64,000 nucleotides of DNA from contig NZ_SODI01000001.1 of NCBI RefSeq assembly GCF_004365915.1, positions 2,356,001 through 2,420,000 of the forward strand. The letters are read 5' to 3'. How positions within the stretch are numbered: the first letter of the stretch is position 1; every line of letters starts with the position of its first letter. Below, one piece after another: positions 4,593-17,976 of the stretch. Under the pieces are notes generated by a model that saw only the letters and a list, made by a program, of their open reading frames with translations, was not told the origin of the DNA and did no database searches. The position numbers and the translations under genes are program-made. This stretch comes from Cryobacterium psychrophilum (GTDB lineage: Bacteria; Actinomycetota; Actinomycetes; Actinomycetales; Microbacteriaceae).

Positions 4593-4669
4593 GCAAAACC
4601 GGTGATGCTGAGACACGCCGGGCCGGTGTGCCACCCGGCACGGCGCGTCGCGAAATGTGCCGGTTTTAG
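4593..4669. repeat. REP-like palindromic repeat, copy 1
   Basis: 77-bp element with arms GCAAAACCGG, eight spacer bases, then GAGACACGCCG on the left, and a complementary right arm ending in CCGGTTTTAG. It lies directly after modC. It belongs to a family of five in this window (see copies at 11407, 11565, the split copy at 12631/17779, and 17901). Confidence 0.85.
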
Positions 4670-11379: not shown

Positions 11380-11406
11380 CCCCGCACCAACCCGGCCACC
11401 CTTCCC

Positions 11407-11483
11407 GCAAAACCGGTGTTTTCGAGACACGCCGAGCTGCCGCGCCGCGCGGGCCGGCGTGTCGCGAACTTTGCCGGTTTTAG
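11407..11483. repeat. REP-like palindromic repeat, copy 2
   Basis: 77-bp palindromic element 27 bases after ackA. Its left arm is GCAAAACCGG, then TGTTTTC, then GAGACACGCCG. It is nearly identical to copy 3, including the central GC-rich part, which suggests a recent local duplication. Confidence 0.88.
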
Positions 11484-11564
11484 GGTGACGTGCGGCTCGG
11501 CGACGGGTGACGGATGTCCCGGGGAGCCGGGAGCGTCGGCATCCGCGTGCGGTGTGCGGTGTGC

Positions 11565-11640
11565 GCAAAACCGGTGTTTTCGAGACACGCCGAGCTGCCG
11601 CGCCGCGCGGGCCGGCGTGTCGTAAATGTGCCGGTTTTAG
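11565..11640. repeat. REP-like palindromic repeat, copy 3
   Basis: 76-bp element in direct orientation to copy 2, almost the same sequence; 81 bases of unique sequence separate them. Its right arm (GCCGGTTTTAG) contains, on the minus strand, the TAA stop codon of the neighbouring DUF559 gene (11637-11639), so gene end and repeat overlap. Confidence 0.88.
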
Positions 11641-12630: not shown

Positions 12631-12668
12631 GCAAAACCGGAGAATCTGAGACACGCCGGGCTGGCGCG
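12631..12668. repeat. REP-like palindromic repeat, left half of split copy
   Basis: Left 38 bp of an element interrupted by the transposon at 12669. It has GCAAAACCGG then GAGACACGCCG. Joined to 17779-17817 it gives exactly 77 bp, the length of copies 1 and 2. Confidence 0.85.
12661..12668. repeat. target-site duplication, left copy
   Basis: CTGGCGCG directly outside the left transposon end; the same eight bases flank the right end at 17771-17778. Confidence 0.8.
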
Positions 12669-12694
12669 TGTGGACTTCGGCGCTCTTTGGCGGC
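12669..12694 (+). repeat. left terminal inverted repeat of the transposon
   Basis: Begins TGTGGACTTC and ends TGGCGGC. It matches the right end (17745-17770, read on the other strand) at 18 of 26 positions. Confidence 0.75.
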
Positions 12695-12716
12695 GTTCTG
12701 TGATCGCTCTGTGTCG

Positions 12717-13529
12717 CTAATTCCCGGTGACGAGGATGCTGGCGGCAGCTTCGATGACGTCGTCAGTGATGGTCTCAAGCTGGTTGATCTTGAGTACTCG
12801 GTTGATCTGGGGGAAGAGCCGTTCGAGGAGGCGGAAGTTGCCGCGCGTGATGCGTTCGATCGCGGCGATGGCTTGCGCGTCGGTGAAGTCGTCGGGGTCG
12901 AGGGTTCGGCCGAAGCGTTTCCAGTGGCGGTCGAGCACGAAGAGGAGTTCATCGCGGCCGAGGGCACGGTAGTGGTGGGAGAATCCGAGTCGGCTGTATA
13001 GCTGGGGGTAGTGGCGGAAGCGCTGGTCGATTCCGGGCATGCCGATGAGGATTATCGCGAGGTGGGATCGGTCGTGCCGGTCGCGGAGGAGTTCAAGCGC
13101 GACGGGGGTGAGTCGTTCGGCTTCGTCGATGATGAGCAGTTCCACCAAGTGCGTGACCATGCCCTCGCGTTTTCGCGGTGCGGGGTCGAGCGTGCGCAGG
13201 TGCTCATCGGCGCAGATACCGACCTTGATCTGCCAGTGGTCAATTTCGTTCATGAGGGTCTTGGGGCGACAGAGCACTTCGGGTGTGTAGAAGACGGTAC
13301 GGGATCGGTTGGCGAGGGCGTAGTGCTTCGCGTCGTGGTCGCCGCGGGGTCCCCACTCGTTGATGTAAGGCTCGAGAGCGTCCCAGTTCGCGTAACGGCG
13401 AGCGGAGTTGGTCTTGCCGACGCCAGCATCGCCGTGGCAGATGCCGATAGTTCGCTCCTTTCGGACGGCGTTGGCGAACTCGGTGAAGCGGCGAGGCTCC
13501 TTGGTCACGATGAATGCCTCGTTCATCAC
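12717..13529 (-). CDS. TniB/p271-like AAA ATPase, transposition regulator
   Basis: 270-aa AAA+ ATPase of the TniB/TnsC/IstB kind, which in relatives binds target DNA and activates the DDE transposase. Walker A is CHGDAGVGKTNSARR (residues ~32-46), and Walker B is LLIIDEAERL near residue 133, followed by a sensor region IILIGMPGIDQRF. Size equals the p271 protein of Tn552. It overlaps the transposase gene by four bases (ATGA), so the pair is translationally coupled. The stop is only 48 bases from the left transposon end. Confidence 0.88.
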   Translation of the reverse strand: MMNEAFIVTKEPRRFTEFANAVRKERTIGICHGDAGVGKTNSARRYANWDALEPYINEWGPRGDHDAKHYALANRSRTVFYTPEVLCRPKTLMNEIDHWQIKVGICADEHLRTLDPAPRKREGMVTHLVELLIIDEAERLTPVALELLRDRHDRSHLAIILIGMPGIDQRFRHYPQLYSRLGFSHHYRALGRDELLFVLDRHWKRFGRTLDPDDFTDAQAIAAIERITRGNFRLLERLFPQINRVLKINQLETITDDVIEAAASILVTGN

Positions 13530-14911
13530 TCGTCTTCTTCGTAGGTGCGCAACCGCGACCGCCGGGACGGTGGTGCTTGGTCCCTTGGTTCTTCGCGGAC
13601 GGCGACGGCCGGGATGCGTTCGTTGATGATGTGACGGAGTTCGCGCCGGCGGGCGCGGCGGGCAGCCTCGATGTCGCGCAGGCTGAGTCGGAGGTTGGGG
13701 TGCTCTTCGTCGACGGCGACGCAGACGAAGGTGTCGCGGTCGTAGACGCGGATCTCGGAAATGTCGCGGGGGTCATAACGGATCGTGATGGTGTGCCCGA
13801 CGAATGGGGCGAGCGTCGGCGCGAGGTATCGCTGGCCTTGGAAGTGGATGCCGTCACGCTGCACTACGCGGTTCTTGGGGACGGTGAGGAGGAGCCCGTC
13901 GAGTTCTTCGAGGCTGTCGGGCATCCGGGGAAGCCAACCGTCGGCAACCCATGCGTCCCGTGGCGAGATGCCCAGCTCGCTGTGCGGCCGGGCGTTGTAG
14001 GTAGCGATGAACTCTCCGATGGCGCGATCGAGTCCCGGAAGATCGAGGACTGGTTGCGGTGTTCGACGGCCGGGTCCCAGGTGCCCGGGGAGGGCTGCGA
14101 GCAGCTCGGTGTTGATGGTGCCGAAGAAGCGCTCGATCTTGCCCCGTCCCTGTGGTCGGCCGACGATGGAGTGGATGATGCGGATGTGCAGTTCGATGGC
14201 GGTGCGTTCGAGGTGGTGGCTGGTGAAGTCGGACCCGCGGTCGACGTGCAGGATGTCGGGGATACCGCACATCGCCCACGTCGGATCGGTCTTGCGCCAG
14301 ATCGCCTGCCGCAGAGCCAGGGCAGTGTTGATGGCTGAGGGGGCACCGGTGAAGACCATGTACCCGCAGATGGCACGGGAGCAGTCGTCCATCACTGTGG
14401 TCAGCCAGGGGCGATCGCGTTTTCCGTCGGCGCCGACGATGAGGATGTCGAGTTCGGTGTGGTCAGATTGCCAGGTCTGGTTGGGGCGTTCCGCGCGACG
14501 GCGGAAGACGAGCTCGTACTTATCCCGATAGGAGGCCGGCCCTTCGAGCGCCAGGGTAACAAGGGCCGGATTGAGCGCTTGGATAATTTGTCGTACGGTC
14601 GCATAGCTCGGCGAGGGCAGCTCGTGCGCTTGCGCATCCGCGACGGCAAGACGATGCAGCGTGGCGACACTGGGCCGTGGCCGAGTCAGCGCCAACCGCT
14701 CGACGAACGCGACCGTCTCGGCCGAGGTTCGGCGGACACCCTTGTCTGTGCGCGCATGAGGGTCAAGGGCTGCGACGCCGCCTACTCGGTAGAGCTGGTT
14801 CCAGCGTTGCAAAGTCCGGCTAGAGATCCCGGTCTCCCGGGCGAGGACCGCGAGTGGTATCTGGTCTTCGATATGCAGCCGAAGAACACGCCATCGCTCC
14901 GCCGAATCCAC
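13526..14911 (-). CDS. DDE transposase, TniA/p480-like (Mu-type C-terminus)
   Basis: 461-aa integrase-core transposase that would cut and join the element ends. The N-terminal ~60 residues form a helix-turn-helix (ARETGISSRTLQRWNQLYR). The catalytic triad is visible in WQSDHTELDI (Asp near residue 150), HVDRGSDFTS (Asp near 222) and GRGKIERFFGTI (Glu near 258). A Mu-transposase-like beta-barrel follows (QRYLAPTLAPFVGHTITIRYDP). The acidic C-terminus may contact the ATPase. It lies between the resolvase gene (7 bases) and the coupled ATPase gene. All three read the same way, as in Tn552-like operons. Confidence 0.9.
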   Translation of the reverse strand: MDSAERWRVLRLHIEDQIPLAVLARETGISSRTLQRWNQLYRVGGVAALDPHARTDKGVRRTSAETVAFVERLALTRPRPSVATLHRLAVADAQAHELPSPSYATVRQIIQALNPALVTLALEGPASYRDKYELVFRRRAERPNQTWQSDHTELDILIVGADGKRDRPWLTTVMDDCSRAICGYMVFTGAPSAINTALALRQAIWRKTDPTWAMCGIPDILHVDRGSDFTSHHLERTAIELHIRIIHSIVGRPQGRGKIERFFGTINTELLAALPGHLGPGRRTPQPVLDLPGLDRAIGEFIATYNARPHSELGISPRDAWVADGWLPRMPDSLEELDGLLLTVPKNRVVQRDGIHFQGQRYLAPTLAPFVGHTITIRYDPRDISEIRVYDRDTFVCVAVDEEHPNLRLSLRDIEAARRARRRELRHIINERIPAVAVREEPRDQAPPSRRSRLRTYEEDE

Positions 14912-14918
14912 GAGTCAC

Positions 14919-15515
14919 CTACACGGTGGTGCTCTCGCGCGCCGCGAGGGCCTGCTGGTGGCGATACAAAGTGGCCCGGCTCCACCCGACAAGCTTTGCC
15001 GCATCCTCCGCAGTGCGGCCCTTCGCTCGGGCTTCCGTGACGAGCTTGAGTTTGTCGGCGACGACGACGGGATCTGACAGGGGCCGACCGAACTTGGTAC
15101 CCCCGTTCCGGGCGGCTGTGATGCCGGCGTTCACACGCTCGGTGATCAGTTCGCGTTCGTACTCGGCCAGGGTGGCGAGCATGTTCAGCATCAGGCGGCC
15201 CGAGGTCGTCGATGGGTCGATTCCGTCCGAGATGCTCTTCACCTGTACGGCCCGCTCTCGGAGCAGCTTCACCGTGTTGAGAACATCGATGAGTGACCGC
15301 CCGAGCCGATCGACCCGCCAGACGACGACGGTGTCACCGGGCTTGGCGTACTCGAGCAGTTTCTTCATTCCGGGGCGTGAGATCGCGGTCCGGCTGCCCG
15401 AGGTGACGTCGGCGAAAATGTCACGCTCCTGGACACCCGATTTGACCAAGGCGTCGACCTGCAGTTTCGCGTCTTGGCTTCTGGTGCTGACCCGTGTGTA
15501 CCCGAGATGTCTCAC
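14919..15515 (-). CDS. serine resolvase/invertase (TniR-like)
   Basis: About 198-aa small serine recombinase that would resolve cointegrates at the nearby res-like site. The catalytic Ser lies in LGYTRVSTRSQD near the N-terminus. Also visible are the conserved VVWRVDRLGRS (near residues 65-75), the YERELITERVNAG helix, and a C-terminal Hin-type helix-turn-helix (TAEDAAKLVGWSRATLYRHQQAL). I choose GTG 15515 because it puts the LGYTRVS motif where family members have it; TTG 15533 is an alternative with six extra residues. It is transcribed toward the transposase and ATPase. Confidence 0.88.
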   Translation of the reverse strand: MRHLGYTRVSTRSQDAKLQVDALVKSGVQERDIFADVTSGSRTAISRPGMKKLLEYAKPGDTVVVWRVDRLGRSLIDVLNTVKLLRERAVQVKSISDGIDPSTTSGRLMLNMLATLAEYERELITERVNAGITAARNGGTKFGRPLSDPVVVADKLKLVTEARAKGRTAEDAAKLVGWSRATLYRHQQALAARESTTV

Positions 15516-15556
15516 CAGACCATTCTGCCTCAATAAATGCTAAAAGCAGCGGAGGG

Positions 15557-15676
15557 AAGACACTTTGCGGTAAGACATGTTTCCAAGACAAGTCGCGTCC
15601 CGGAAATCCGCCACACGTTCCTGCAGCTCGGGGGGAGGTGTTGAGTGTCTCGGAAACCTTTAGCTTTTCGGGACAC
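15557..15676. promoter_or_regulatory. res-like recombination site and resolvase promoter region
   Basis: The 120 bases upstream of the resolvase hold repeated half-sites of the form TGTCTYGGAAA in both directions. A clean dimer is at 15645-15676 (GTGTCTCGGAAA facing GTGTCCCGAAAA). A further half-site GTTTCCAAGACA is at 15579-15590, and AAGACA copies lie at 15558 and 15572. Position and layout match resolution sites of serine resolvases; binding is inferred. Confidence 0.6.
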
Positions 15677-15966
15677 AGAACCTCATGATCGTTCTGATGG
15701 TGACCTATGTCGTTGAAGGCCGCTCGACAGCGGGCTGACGTTGACTGGCACGCTTCCAATAGGGTTATGCGCCAAGTTCCCGTCCATCCCCTCATTCTCC
15801 GGAACCAGATGCGCGGATAACGATCGCTCCCGCCAGTCTTCCTCGTGCGCACGAAGCGCAGCGGCTCTAACAAGCAGACATATTTGTCCCATTTAATGCC
15901 GACTTGCCCGGCCCCAGGTACGGCTGGGTAACTGGGTCAAGTAATGACACTCAAAAGGGGGAACTC
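15677..15966. other. non-coding stretch inside transposon, between res-like site and cargo
   Basis: About 290 bases with no convincing gene on either strand. The only clear signal is the purine run AAAAGGGGG at 15952-15960, the ribosome-binding site of the following secreted-protein gene. Confidence 0.5.
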
Positions 15967-16560
15967 ATGAGAAGGAATTTTGCAATTGCTATCGGGATCG
16001 TGGGTTCGTTGCTGACATTGGGGGTAGCTGGCCCTGCGAATGCAGCGAAGGACTCGGGTGCTGAATTCGATGATTCCAACCCGGGTTGGTATGCCGTTGC
16101 GCCAGCCAATGGGGAAGTTTTTCTTCCTGGCGAGACGGATATTTGGGTGGACACAGAATCCGAGCCCGGCACGGTATCTCCAATGCTTTTAGACCCGGCC
16201 GATTGGTGGGAGTGCCACAGCAACAACAACTCGAGCTGGGTGATCGTCGACTACCCGTTCTGGTGGGACGGGATCGAGAAGACGATGAAGCTTCAGTGCG
16301 GGGTCTCGGAATCCTACGGGTGGTTCCACATTCGCGATGGGCACATGGAGCAGTGGAAGAATCGCATCACGCAGGCAACGCCCAACGCGAGCACTGATCC
16401 CTGGGACGACTTGATGTGGTGGGGAGCCACAGGCGCACTGGACTCCCCCTACAGCAGTTCGGGCCCCACGAGTGGGAAACTTTGTGTAACGACACAGATT
16501 GACATGTACAACACGAGCACTCAGCAGCACGTCTACACGTTTTATCCGACGTACTCTTAG
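15967..16560 (+). CDS. secreted protein of unknown function (transposon cargo)
   Basis: 197-aa protein with a typical Sec signal peptide: MRRN, a hydrophobic stretch, and cleavage expected after GPANA near residue 27. The mature part is acidic, rich in Trp, Ser and Tyr, and has two Cys in its first half (WWECHS, LQCGVS) and one near the C-terminus (KLCVTT). I recognise no family; three Cys and many aromatic residues suggest a small extracellular beta-rich domain, which is only a guess. A strong ribosome-binding site (AAAGGGGG) lies six bases before the ATG. Codon use is less GC-rich than in neighbouring housekeeping genes, consistent with horizontal arrival on the transposon. Confidence 0.8.
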   Translation: MRRNFAIAIGIVGSLLTLGVAGPANAAKDSGAEFDDSNPGWYAVAPANGEVFLPGETDIWVDTESEPGTVSPMLLDPADWWECHSNNNSSWVIVDYPFWWDGIEKTMKLQCGVSESYGWFHIRDGHMEQWKNRITQATPNASTDPWDDLMWWGATGALDSPYSSSGPTSGKLCVTTQIDMYNTSTQQHVYTFYPTYS

Positions 16561-16630
16561 TCGCTAACCAACGACAGACTTATCACTGGCTACCCGTCGT
16601 CCAATCCAGACTGTTGAGCGGAGATCCCAT

Positions 16631-16960
16631 TTGAACCACTCGTCCGACCGCACGACCGTTCGCCTTCTCAACGATGGACCCATGAAATGGCCACTCTGGT
16701 TCGGGAACGCGGTTGCAGATGATCGAAGCGGGCAGCCGATCTCAGATGCTCTTGAGTTGGAACTTTTGGAATGGACGAGGTTCTACCATGAGCACTGTGA
16801 CGACGAGTGGGACAGTATCGAGAACTCCATACGCTACAACGAAATGGGATGCGCTGTCGCACAGGGAGTTTCAGCGGAGCTCGGCTCGGACTACCGCGTT
16901 CTCTTGCAACTCCAGCGAACGGCATCAGAACCGCAGAGGTGGATCGAAGTGGGTCTCTAG
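16631..16960 (+). CDS. hypothetical protein (transposon cargo)
   Basis: 109-aa acidic soluble protein, not recognised. It begins at TTG 16631, with GGAG seven bases upstream; ATG 16682 is a possible internal start. The centre is rich in Glu/Trp (LELELLEWTRFYHEHCDDEWDS), and no signal peptide or membrane segment is seen. It lies 70 bases after the secreted-protein gene in the same direction, so the two may share a transcript. Real-gene status rests on codon periodicity, the ribosome-binding site and context. Confidence 0.6.
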   Translation: MNHSSDRTTVRLLNDGPMKWPLWFGNAVADDRSGQPISDALELELLEWTRFYHEHCDDEWDSIENSIRYNEMGCAVAQGVSAELGSDYRVLLQLQRTASEPQRWIEVGL

Positions 16961-17009
16961 GCTCTGGCTCAATGCACAACAGGGGCGTTGTTGCAACTGT
17001 GCCCCTGTT

Positions 17010-17589
17010 GTGTGCGCGGCACCCGTTCGAGCTGGGCGATACGTCGGCACAGGGTGGCTCGGGATTAGGTTGGCCCTGCCGTCTTATATCGCATCGGTTT
17101 TGAGCGAGACTCGCAGCTCTGGAGGATTTCAACAGTCCTATGCCAAGCTGCCGGGTACGGACGCTGACTCCTGTTTGACTTACCCTGACGTTCGCGACGT
17201 CTTCCTCTGCCACGCTTGGGATGACCGGCTCGGTGCTGCCAAGGAGCTGCACGACCTGCTCGAGTCCAAGCACGTGTCGGTCTGGTCAGCTAGAAGGACG
17301 TCATGCTCGGCAGCAACGCCGATCCGCGTAATCGACGAGGGCCTAGCGAAGTCGCGTGCCGGGCTCGTGGTCACCCTGCACTGCTGACCCGCCTCGCGTC
17401 GGAGGGGGATCGCTGACAAAGGACCTCGGAGCTCCTGGCGCGCGACCAGCTCCTCCCCATTGTGCACGGGACGACGTAAAGACTCTCCGGGCGGTCAGTC
17501 CCCTGCTCGGCAAGCGAAGCGGGTTGAGCACTGCAGAATATTCGATGGCAGACATCGCGGCCAAGATCCCCGAGCTGGTCGACGTGTAG
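17010..17589 (+). pseudogene. decayed TIR-domain protein gene
   Basis: Fragments of one TIR domain can be read only by switching frames. Frame 1 gives DVRDVFLCHAWDDRLGAAKE and then SKHVSVWS. A second frame gives KDVMLGSN, the loop expected right after VW. Frame 1 resumes with VIDEGLAKSRAGLVV. A third frame gives SELLARDQLLPIVHG, and the last piece reads VKTLRAVSPLLGKRSGLST. The order and spacing match intact bacterial TIR proteins, where these motifs include the NAD-site region and the final helices. At least three frame changes and an internal stop at ~17385 show it is dead. The part before the TIR (CAAPVRAGRYVGTGWLGIRL) resembles the short leader of such proteins. Intact relatives often act in antiphage defence; that role here is inference. 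Confidence 0.75.
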
Positions 17590-17744
17590 GACCTGTTCGG
17601 ACTGAGGTGTGAGGGTCACTGGGCGCTGTTGCCTGCGACCTCGACGCGCGCCGGCGTGCCGCGCGCTTCTGCAATTCCTCGGAGCGGCGTCCGATAGGCC
17701 ATCGGCTTGCGAGCATCAAAGGTGACATTTAGCGTTGCGAAAAG

Positions 17745-17770
17745 GCCGCCATATATCGCTGGGATTCACA
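17745..17770 (-). repeat. right terminal inverted repeat of the transposon
   Basis: Read inward on the minus strand it begins TGTGAATCCC and ends TGGCGGC, pairing with the left end at 12669-12694. Confidence 0.75.
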
Positions 17771-17778
17771 CTGGCGCG
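17771..17778. repeat. target-site duplication, right copy
   Basis: CTGGCGCG, identical to 12661-12668. Confidence 0.8.
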
Positions 17779-17817
17779 CCACGAAACACGGCGTGTCTCG
17801 AAAAGGACCGGTTTTGC
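17779..17817. repeat. REP-like palindromic repeat, right half of split copy
   Basis: CGGCGTGTCTCG then CCGGTTTTGC, the complement of the left arm at 12631. It completes the 77-bp element interrupted by the transposon. Confidence 0.85.
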
Positions 17818-17900: not shown

Positions 17901-17976
17901 CGAAAACCGGTCATTCTGAGACACGCCGTGCCAGGTGGCAGCGCAGACGGCGTGTCTCGAAAAACACCGGTTTTGC
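17901..17976. repeat. REP-like palindromic repeat, copy 5
   Basis: 76-bp element whose two arms are the most symmetrical of the family: GAAAACCGG, spacer, GAGACACGCCG on the left, and CGGCGTGTCTCG, spacer, ACCGGTTTTGC on the right. It lies 64 bases beyond the 3' end of the VOC gene. Confidence 0.88.

What the first reader, a model, noticed from the sequence alone, without database searches (positions are those of the whole stretch)
12631..17817. Complete Tn552/Tn5053-like transposon inserted into a palindromic repeat
Both ends read TGTG inward and share 18 of 26 bases, including an identical TGGCGGC. CTGGCGCG is duplicated exactly outside both ends. Removing 12669-17778 joins two half-repeats into a 77-bp element, the exact length of other family members. 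Inside are transposase, AAA ATPase and serine resolvase with sizes like Tn552 proteins, but an 8-bp duplication and short ends, so it may be a new actinobacterial lineage. The insertion is probably fairly recent because both half-repeats are still clear.
Basis: partly seen in the sequence, partly recalled or inferred. Interest (0 to 1): 0.72.

Follow-up and report, generated by a model that had tools for sequence, protein, structure and literature searches.

The report
Transposon inside a resolvase-site lookalike
A complete jumping element in a Cryobacterium chromosome has landed in the middle of a palindrome that carries the same short DNA word that the element's own recombinase site is built from, which suggests how such elements can be lured to chromosomal sites.

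Summary
A 5,102-bp element (12669-17770) is flanked by CTGGCGCG. A relative has the same neighbours with an uninterrupted 77-bp palindrome and no element. The same end type closes 62 of 80 relatives; 32 two-ended copies show 6-10 bp duplications, most often 9. It is a Tn552-like element (DDE transposase, AAA ATPase, serine resolvase, no TniQ found) of a large actinobacterial group; Tn5053 membership fails.

The new part is the target. Relatives insert beside resolvase genes like 'res-site hunters': 11 of 22 external resolvase frames listed start 65-99 bp from an insertion. The family's own res site I is two GTGTCTCGAAAA half-sites. That 12-mer occurs 5 times in the 3.68-Mb genome, 4 in these palindromes, one of them 22 bp from this insertion. 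Half-site-like words pointing away are enriched 15-29 bp from insertions in relatives and in a second, plasmid set.

Best reading (0.68): the transposon was drawn to a chromosomal mimic of a res-site spacer. Resolvase binding is inferred, not shown.

The parts
12669..17770 (.). transposon, 5,102 bp
   Evidence: conserved ends, 8-bp duplication, empty site in a relative
12661..12668 (.). target duplication CTGGCGCG, left copy
17771..17778 (.). target duplication CTGGCGCG, right copy
12669..12694 (+). left (ATPase-side) terminal repeat TGTGGACTTCGGCGCTCTTTGGCGGC
   Evidence: same end type in relatives
17745..17770 (-). right (cargo-side) terminal repeat TGTGAATCCCAGCGATATATGGCGGC
   Evidence: 18 of 26 identical to the left end
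12717..13529 (-). AAA ATPase, 270 aa
   Evidence: AAA_22 3.7e-19; TniB 0.0035, below its cut-off
13526..14911 (-). DDE transposase, 461 aa (Mu-C, rve; TnsB-like)
   Evidence: Pfam; PDB TnsB 1.6e-40
14919..15533 (-). serine resolvase, 204 aa
   Evidence: Resolvase 4e-41
15645..15676 (-). own res site I (two inverted half-sites)
   Evidence: conserved about 131 bp upstream of the resolvase domain in relatives
15580..15591 (-). half-site of a probable res site II (a further weaker half-site of opposite orientation lies at 15595-15606; its role is unclear)
12631..12668 (.). left part (38 bp, with the duplication) of the 77-bp palindromic repeat
17779..17817 (.). right part (39 bp) of the 77-bp palindromic repeat
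17793..17804 (+). perfect half-site GTGTCTCGAAAA in the target repeat, 22 bp from the element counting the duplication
12643..12654 (-). second, weaker half-site GTGTCTCAGATT in the target repeat, 14 bp from the element counting the duplication
11409..11481 (+). intact palindromic repeat with one perfect half-site (11419-11430)
11567..11638 (+). intact palindromic repeat with one perfect half-site (11577-11588)
17903..17974 (+). intact palindromic repeat with one perfect half-site (17952-17963)
4595..4667 (+). intact palindromic repeat with weak half-sites
15967..16560 (+). cargo: putative secreted protein of unknown function, 197 aa from an internal ATG (the listed ORF starts at 15904)
   Evidence: 4 relatives found, best 80% identical, Cryobacterium; no Pfam or PHROG match
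16631..16960 (+). cargo: small protein of unknown function, 109 aa
   Evidence: no Pfam or PHROG match at E <= 0.01
17199..17372 (+). cargo: part of a TIR domain (57 of 122 profile positions)
   Evidence: TIR_2 4.9e-05, below the curated cut-off

Best explanation
This is a complete Tn552-like transposon of an actinobacterial group whose members often insert beside resolvase (res) recombination sites. SHOWN: its borders, duplication, empty site and gene set. SHOWN by statistics: in relatives, half-site-like words of the family's resolvase are enriched 15-29 bp from the insertion, pointing away from it. SHOWN: the chromosomal palindrome it entered holds one perfect and one weaker such half-site pointing away from each other across a 28-bp spacer, with the insertion in that spacer. 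INFERRED: a serine resolvase, most simply the incoming element's own, binds these boxes; the ATPase/transposase complex then treats the spacer as the gap between res sites I and II, as res-site hunters are reported to do, and joins the element there with an 8-bp stagger. So the repeat acted as a decoy res site in the chromosome.
For: Empty site in G032. Own-res half-site consensus GTGTCTCGAAAA, from 60 half-sites of 30 relatives with the window left out. In the 64-kb window the four perfect matches are all in the palindromes and the next three are in the element's own res. Perfect 12-mer: 5 in the genome, 4 in the palindromes, 1 in neither a palindrome nor the element. Everted GAGACAC-N20..36-GTGTCTC: 2 places in the genome, both palindromes; the target before insertion would be a third. 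Relatives, window excluded, 84 flanks: 9 away-pointing matches at 15-29 bp against 1.5 expected (this bin was picked after seeing the profile). Second set, plasmid copies, 14 flanks, same bin: 4 against 0.26. All 98 flanks: 13 observed, mean 2.2 with column-shuffled matrices, 0 of 1,000 as high. Everted boxes on both sides, 31 bp apart with the insertion between, also in L046 and L178, which insert beside the resolvase of another such element. Literature passage: res-site hunters mostly use the box I-box II spacer (PMC12217951).
Against: No resolvase gene stands beside this insertion, and binding to the palindrome was not measured. The half-sites are everted, not inverted as in site I, and the second one here is weak (11.2 bits against 21.5). 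Most flanks show no such word: 13 matches in 98 flanks, and several copies that do sit beside a resolvase (for example L021, L025, L038, L100, L158) have none in that bin; this is expected if their targets belong to other resolvases, but not proven. Only this copy was seen in a palindrome: of the flanks checked, only the window's two carry two arm words within 70 bp; L047 has one lone arm word. None of the 9 flanks of 7 other Cryobacterium copies does. Res-site hunters can also land, rarely, at non-res sites (passage in PMC7765201).
Confidence: 0.68

Rival explanations
1. Chance: the element landed at a random tolerated intergenic site that happened to be one of the repeats.
For: Rare non-res insertions of res-site hunters are reported (passage in PMC7765201). 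Only one copy in a palindrome was seen.
Against: The 21 intact repeats found (a lower bound) cover about 0.04% of the genome, and the 5 perfect half-sites with 40 bp on each side about 0.013% (my arithmetic). Offset and orientation match those enriched in other copies.
Confidence: 0.14
2. Shape, not sequence: the element prefers cruciform or terminator-like palindromes, as several IS families prefer REP sequences.
For: The target is a strong palindrome. IS families IS3, IS110, IS4, IS256 and IS5 are reported to use REPs as targets (passage in PMC1525189).
Against: Dyad symmetry around 27 insertion sites, the window included, is not above control positions (Mann-Whitney P = 0.14), whereas half-site words and resolvase genes are near insertions.
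Confidence: 0.1
3. Another host DNA-binding protein occupies the repeat and recruits the transposon; the likeness to the resolvase half-site is coincidence.
For: The repeat is spread through the genus (37 of 57 genomes at E <= 1e-5), so it may have a host function; several boxes read GTGTCGCG, off the resolvase consensus.
Against: Four exact 12-bp matches to an independently derived consensus are hard to get by chance; column-shuffled matrices never reached the target repeat's score (0 of 5,000).
Confidence: 0.08

Closest known systems
Tn552 and Tn552-like elements of Firmicutes plasmids (yardstick: L155, Listeria innocua pLI100)
   Same: Gene set of transposase, AAA ATPase and serine resolvase, no TniQ annotated; transposase 38.7% and ATPase 38.6% identical; a further recombinase gene lies just beyond the ATPase in the yardstick
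   Different: In the yardstick the resolvase gene is divergent from the transposase gene, here they run the same way; 8-bp (group mostly 9-bp) duplications and short, imperfect ends, where Tn552 itself is recalled to have 6-7 bp duplications and inverted repeats over 100 bp. Tn552's own sequence was not fetched, and no convincing ends were found for the yardstick
Tn5053/Tn402 res-site hunters
   Same: Targeting next to res sites; box I-box II spacer preferred (passage in PMC12217951)
   Different: No TniQ found; not 5-bp duplications; a transposase beside an annotated TniB gene (L157) is only 26.5% identical over 80% of the query. Tn5053 and Tn402 themselves were not fetched
Elements in other actinobacteria, e.g. 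Cryobacterium arcticum pP27867_2 (L158)
   Same: Same end type, same three genes (resolvase 94%, transposase 86%, ATPase 87%), 9-bp duplication, 74 bp from a plasmid resolvase gene
   Different: Sits beside a plasmid resolvase gene, not in a chromosomal palindrome
IS elements that target REP palindromes (IS1397, IS621, ISPpu9 and others)
   Same: Mobile DNA inserted in a repeated chromosomal palindrome
   Different: Other transposase families; the word resolvase does not occur in that paper's main text (PMC1525189, passages)

Membership tests
Tn552-like (transposase, ATPase, resolvase; no TniQ) | DDE transposase with Mu-C domain of about 460-480 aa | tested here: met
Tn552-like (transposase, ATPase, resolvase; no TniQ) | AAA ATPase of about 270 aa directly after the transposase gene | tested here: met
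Tn552-like (transposase, ATPase, resolvase; no TniQ) | own serine resolvase with an upstream multi-part res | tested here: met
   gene; site I clear, site II probable, site III only suggested
Tn552 proper | 6-7 bp target duplications (recalled) | tested here: not met
   8 bp here; 15 of 32 copies 9 bp
Tn552 proper | long (over 100 bp) terminal inverted repeats (recalled) | tested here: not met
   18 of the first 26 identical, 32 of 60 over 60
Tn5053/Tn402 family | tniA, tniB, tniQ, tniR | tested here: not met
   no TniQ match in the six reading frames tested
Tn5053/Tn402 family | 5-bp direct repeats | tested here: not met
   8 bp
res-site hunters (behaviour) | insertion beside a resolvase gene at res | tested here: inconclusive
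   met for part of the group: 10 of 27 two-ended copies have an external resolvase domain start within 400 bp, pointing away; not met for this copy
res-site hunters (behaviour) | needs a cognate resolvase bound at the target | not testable with these tools
   experimental

The most novel reading that the evidence does not exclude
The palindromic repeats found across Cryobacterium are chromosomal serine-recombinase binding sites: everted GTGTC-N-CGAAAA boxes at fixed spacing. They work as decoy res sites that steer res-hunting transposons from plasmids into safe chromosomal gaps.
Probability: 0.25. Interest if true: 0.72.

Novelty: new variant of a known kind. Interest (0 to 1): 0.5.

Why it matters
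It ties an unnamed repeat family to a recombinase recognition word, and gives a testable answer to how res-hunting transposons can find chromosomal homes. It also documents res-side insertion and mostly 9-bp duplications for a large actinobacterial transposon group, for which the searches listed no description in the held papers.

Tried and rejected
Dyad symmetry as a general target rule was rejected (P = 0.14). A resident chromosomal resolvase with the same half-site was looked for: besides the element's own, one search lists ten matches; the five near full length (38-43% identity, one with a stop) have upstream regions with at best moderate matches (12.8 bits or less), so none is a clear candidate; the five partial matches were not examined. 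Rfam gave two tRNAs and the SRP RNA. In the transposase tree the rows L002 and L004 were translated on the wrong strand and are meaningless; L003, L157 and L155 are on very long branches; only the actinobacterial part is used. My first join used a wrong right border and was redone. The set of 27 two-ended copies was picked by me's best matches, leaving out those whose two ends did not resemble each other. L056 had an 8-bp duplication but was dropped. Of the 12 plasmid loci, two gave no end and one (L181) a doubtful one that was kept; L158 had already been looked at, so that set is not wholly blind; L175's two ends are identical at 26 of 26 and may belong to a composite. The site I search used a pattern written after seeing the alignment and found 36 sites among 72 loci with an own resolvase; 30 were used (the window, L049 as misplaced, and L043, L050, L062, L069 as redundant left out). 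Ends of the Listeria innocua and Dinoroseobacter yardsticks were sought and not convincingly found.
Full report
WHAT IS THERE. The element runs from 12669 to 17770 (5,102 bp). Its ends begin TGTG and agree at 18 of 26 positions; CTGGCGCG is repeated directly outside both. Reading inward from the left end there are an AAA ATPase (270 aa), a DDE transposase with rve and Mu-C domains (461 aa; best solved relatives are TnsB proteins, 1.6e-40) and a serine resolvase (204 aa). By eye the transposase keeps D, D and a DX35E pair, the ATPase its Walker A and B motifs and the resolvase its active serine (motifs recalled). The remaining 2.2 kb is lower in G+C (58%) than the transposition genes (64%) and the window (66%), and holds a putative secreted protein, a small protein and part of a TIR domain.

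EMPTY SITE. Genome G032 of the genus has the downstream glyoxalase gene (81% identity) and, in register with the window, three palindromic repeats; the third is uninterrupted where the window has the transposon. The joined window flanks align across it: 77% over 935 bp, then 78% over 447 bp on the glyoxalase side.

THE FAMILY. One scan of genome contigs gave 128 confirmed relatives, of which the best 80 are kept, all actinobacterial by title. The plasmid collection gave 42 records at 60% identity or more; the 30 records listed are all actinobacterial. In the genus, 15 of 57 genomes have a match at E <= 1e-60. An ATPase-side end was found in 62 of the 80 relatives. Two-ended copies with exact duplications number 32 with the window and five plasmid copies: 9 bp in 15, 6 bp in 8, 8 bp in 4, 7 bp in 4, 10 bp in 1; in the Curtobacterium-type clade, five of seven have 6 and two have 7. 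Exact matching can overstate a length by chance and understate one with a mutation. In the tree the window lies in a supported set of 11 actinobacterial rows (99/94) that includes the C. arcticum plasmid copy.

RELATIVES OFTEN SIT BESIDE RESOLVASES. Of 27 two-ended copies (window included), 10 have an external resolvase domain start within 400 bp pointing away from the insertion; the window has none. Of the 22 external resolvase entries listed across the loci with an end, 11 start at 65-99 bp. No formal control was run on these distances. In the plasmid set 2 of 12 loci have one (74 and 82 bp). The Listeria innocua and Dinoroseobacter yardsticks also have a recombinase gene just beyond the ATPase. 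The literature describes Tn5053/Tn402 elements as res-site hunters (listing, passages) that mostly use the spacer between box I and box II (PMC12217951) and rarely transpose without an external resolvase (PMC7765201).

THE KEY LINK. Aligning the DNA upstream of the group's own resolvase genes shows an inverted pair ending about 131 bp upstream of the resolvase domain: GTGTCTCGAAAA - 8 bp - TTTTCGAGACAC, res site I. A matrix from 60 half-sites of 30 relatives (window left out) was run over the window's 64 kb, both strands: its only four perfect matches are in the palindromic repeats (11419, 11577, 17793, 17952), followed by three in the element's own res and then two unrelated places at 16.3 and 16.2 bits. 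Genome-wide the 12-mer occurs five times; the fifth, at 969868, lies outside the repeats. The palindromes carry these boxes back to back, pointing away from each other. In the target the spacer between GAGACAC and GTGTCTC is 28 bp and the transposon sits inside it. Intact pairs of that form (spacer 20-36) occur at two other places in the genome, both palindromes.

DOES THE GEOMETRY MATCH OTHER COPIES? Partly, and significantly. With the window and two near-identical flanks (L048, L061) left out, away-pointing matches (score 4 or more) number 9 in the 15-29 bp bin of 84 flanks against 1.5 expected, with 8 toward-pointing at 30-44 bp against 1.3, as for a complete inverted site starting about 20 bp out. 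That bin was noticed in this set, so the plasmid set is the better test: 4 in 14 flanks against 0.26, and 3 toward-pointing against 0.31. With 1,000 column-shuffled matrices the combined count (13 in 98 flanks) was never reached. Best scores within 120 bp also exceed control blocks without the window (Mann-Whitney P = 8e-8), though only 2 of 86 flanks pass the controls' 99th percentile. The window has boxes at 22 and 14 bp. In L046 and L178 the target lies beside the resolvase of another transposon of this kind, with everted GAGACAC and CGTCTC or GTGTCTC words 31 bp apart around the insertion (spacing counted by eye). The palindrome thus looks like the gap between two res subsites. Against this: most flanks have no good match, several resolvase-side copies have none in that bin, and palindrome symmetry is not a group rule.

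THE REPEAT. A covariance model from 25 copies finds 42 strand-wise matches at 21 places in the genome (150 of 7,727 candidates were scored, so a lower bound) and matches in 37 of 57 genomes of the genus (strict filters, 86 candidates scored per genome). A stricter word pattern matches 9 of 57 genomes. Of the 16 copies with fetched DNA, 14 have at least one box scoring 9 or more at the expected place. In the window one copy lies 30 bp after the acetate kinase gene, so a host role such as a terminator is possible. What binds the repeat is unknown. Of the flanks checked, only the window's carry two arm words.

VERDICT. An ordinary kind of element with an instructive landing site. The element's identity is secure (my estimate 0.95); the res-mimic mechanism is an inference at 0.68. 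The searches listed no description of this repeat or of res-hunting by this actinobacterial group; I saw listings, and passages of three papers; most subscription papers are not held.

Noticed in passing
G000:C1:2439463-2439487 (locus L172): A lone end-like sequence of this transposon type, with no transposase or ATPase in the 15.5 kb read, lies about 160 bp upstream of another resolvase match (2439649): perhaps a relic of an older res-side insertion. No second duplication copy was found, and the loose end pattern also occurs 4 times in 27.7 kb of control loci, some of which overlap this element's own ends.
   Followed up: partly
L044, L099, L100 (cargo-side ends); L175 (flank beyond the ATPase end): The cargo-side end TGTGGCTTCGTTCGCTTGGTGGCGGGG is the same in L044 and in L099/L100, whose transposases lie in different clades, and appears again just outside the element in L175. 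Elements may swap cargo ends by recombination at res site I.
   Followed up: no
relatives' own res site I: The outer (cargo-side) half of site I looks more variable than the inner half, as expected if cargo is exchanged by crossover at site I; the search pattern fixed part of the inner half, so this needs an unbiased test.
   Followed up: no
window 11405-11640: Two near-identical palindromic repeats in tandem lie between the converging ends of the acetate kinase gene and a gene with weak AbiEi and restriction-type matches; a tandem pair is at the same place in G032 (C64:17682 and 17861).
   Followed up: partly
L158 (Cryobacterium arcticum pP27867_2): A close relative of the element carries genes annotated as heavy-metal regulator, alkylmercury lyase and oxidoreductase between the same ends.
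   Followed up: no
window 17199-17372: Partial TIR domain in the cargo; possibly what is left of a defence gene.
   Followed up: no
G001:C53:147878-149072: Decayed copy of the transposase with internal stops in another genome of the genus.
   Followed up: no
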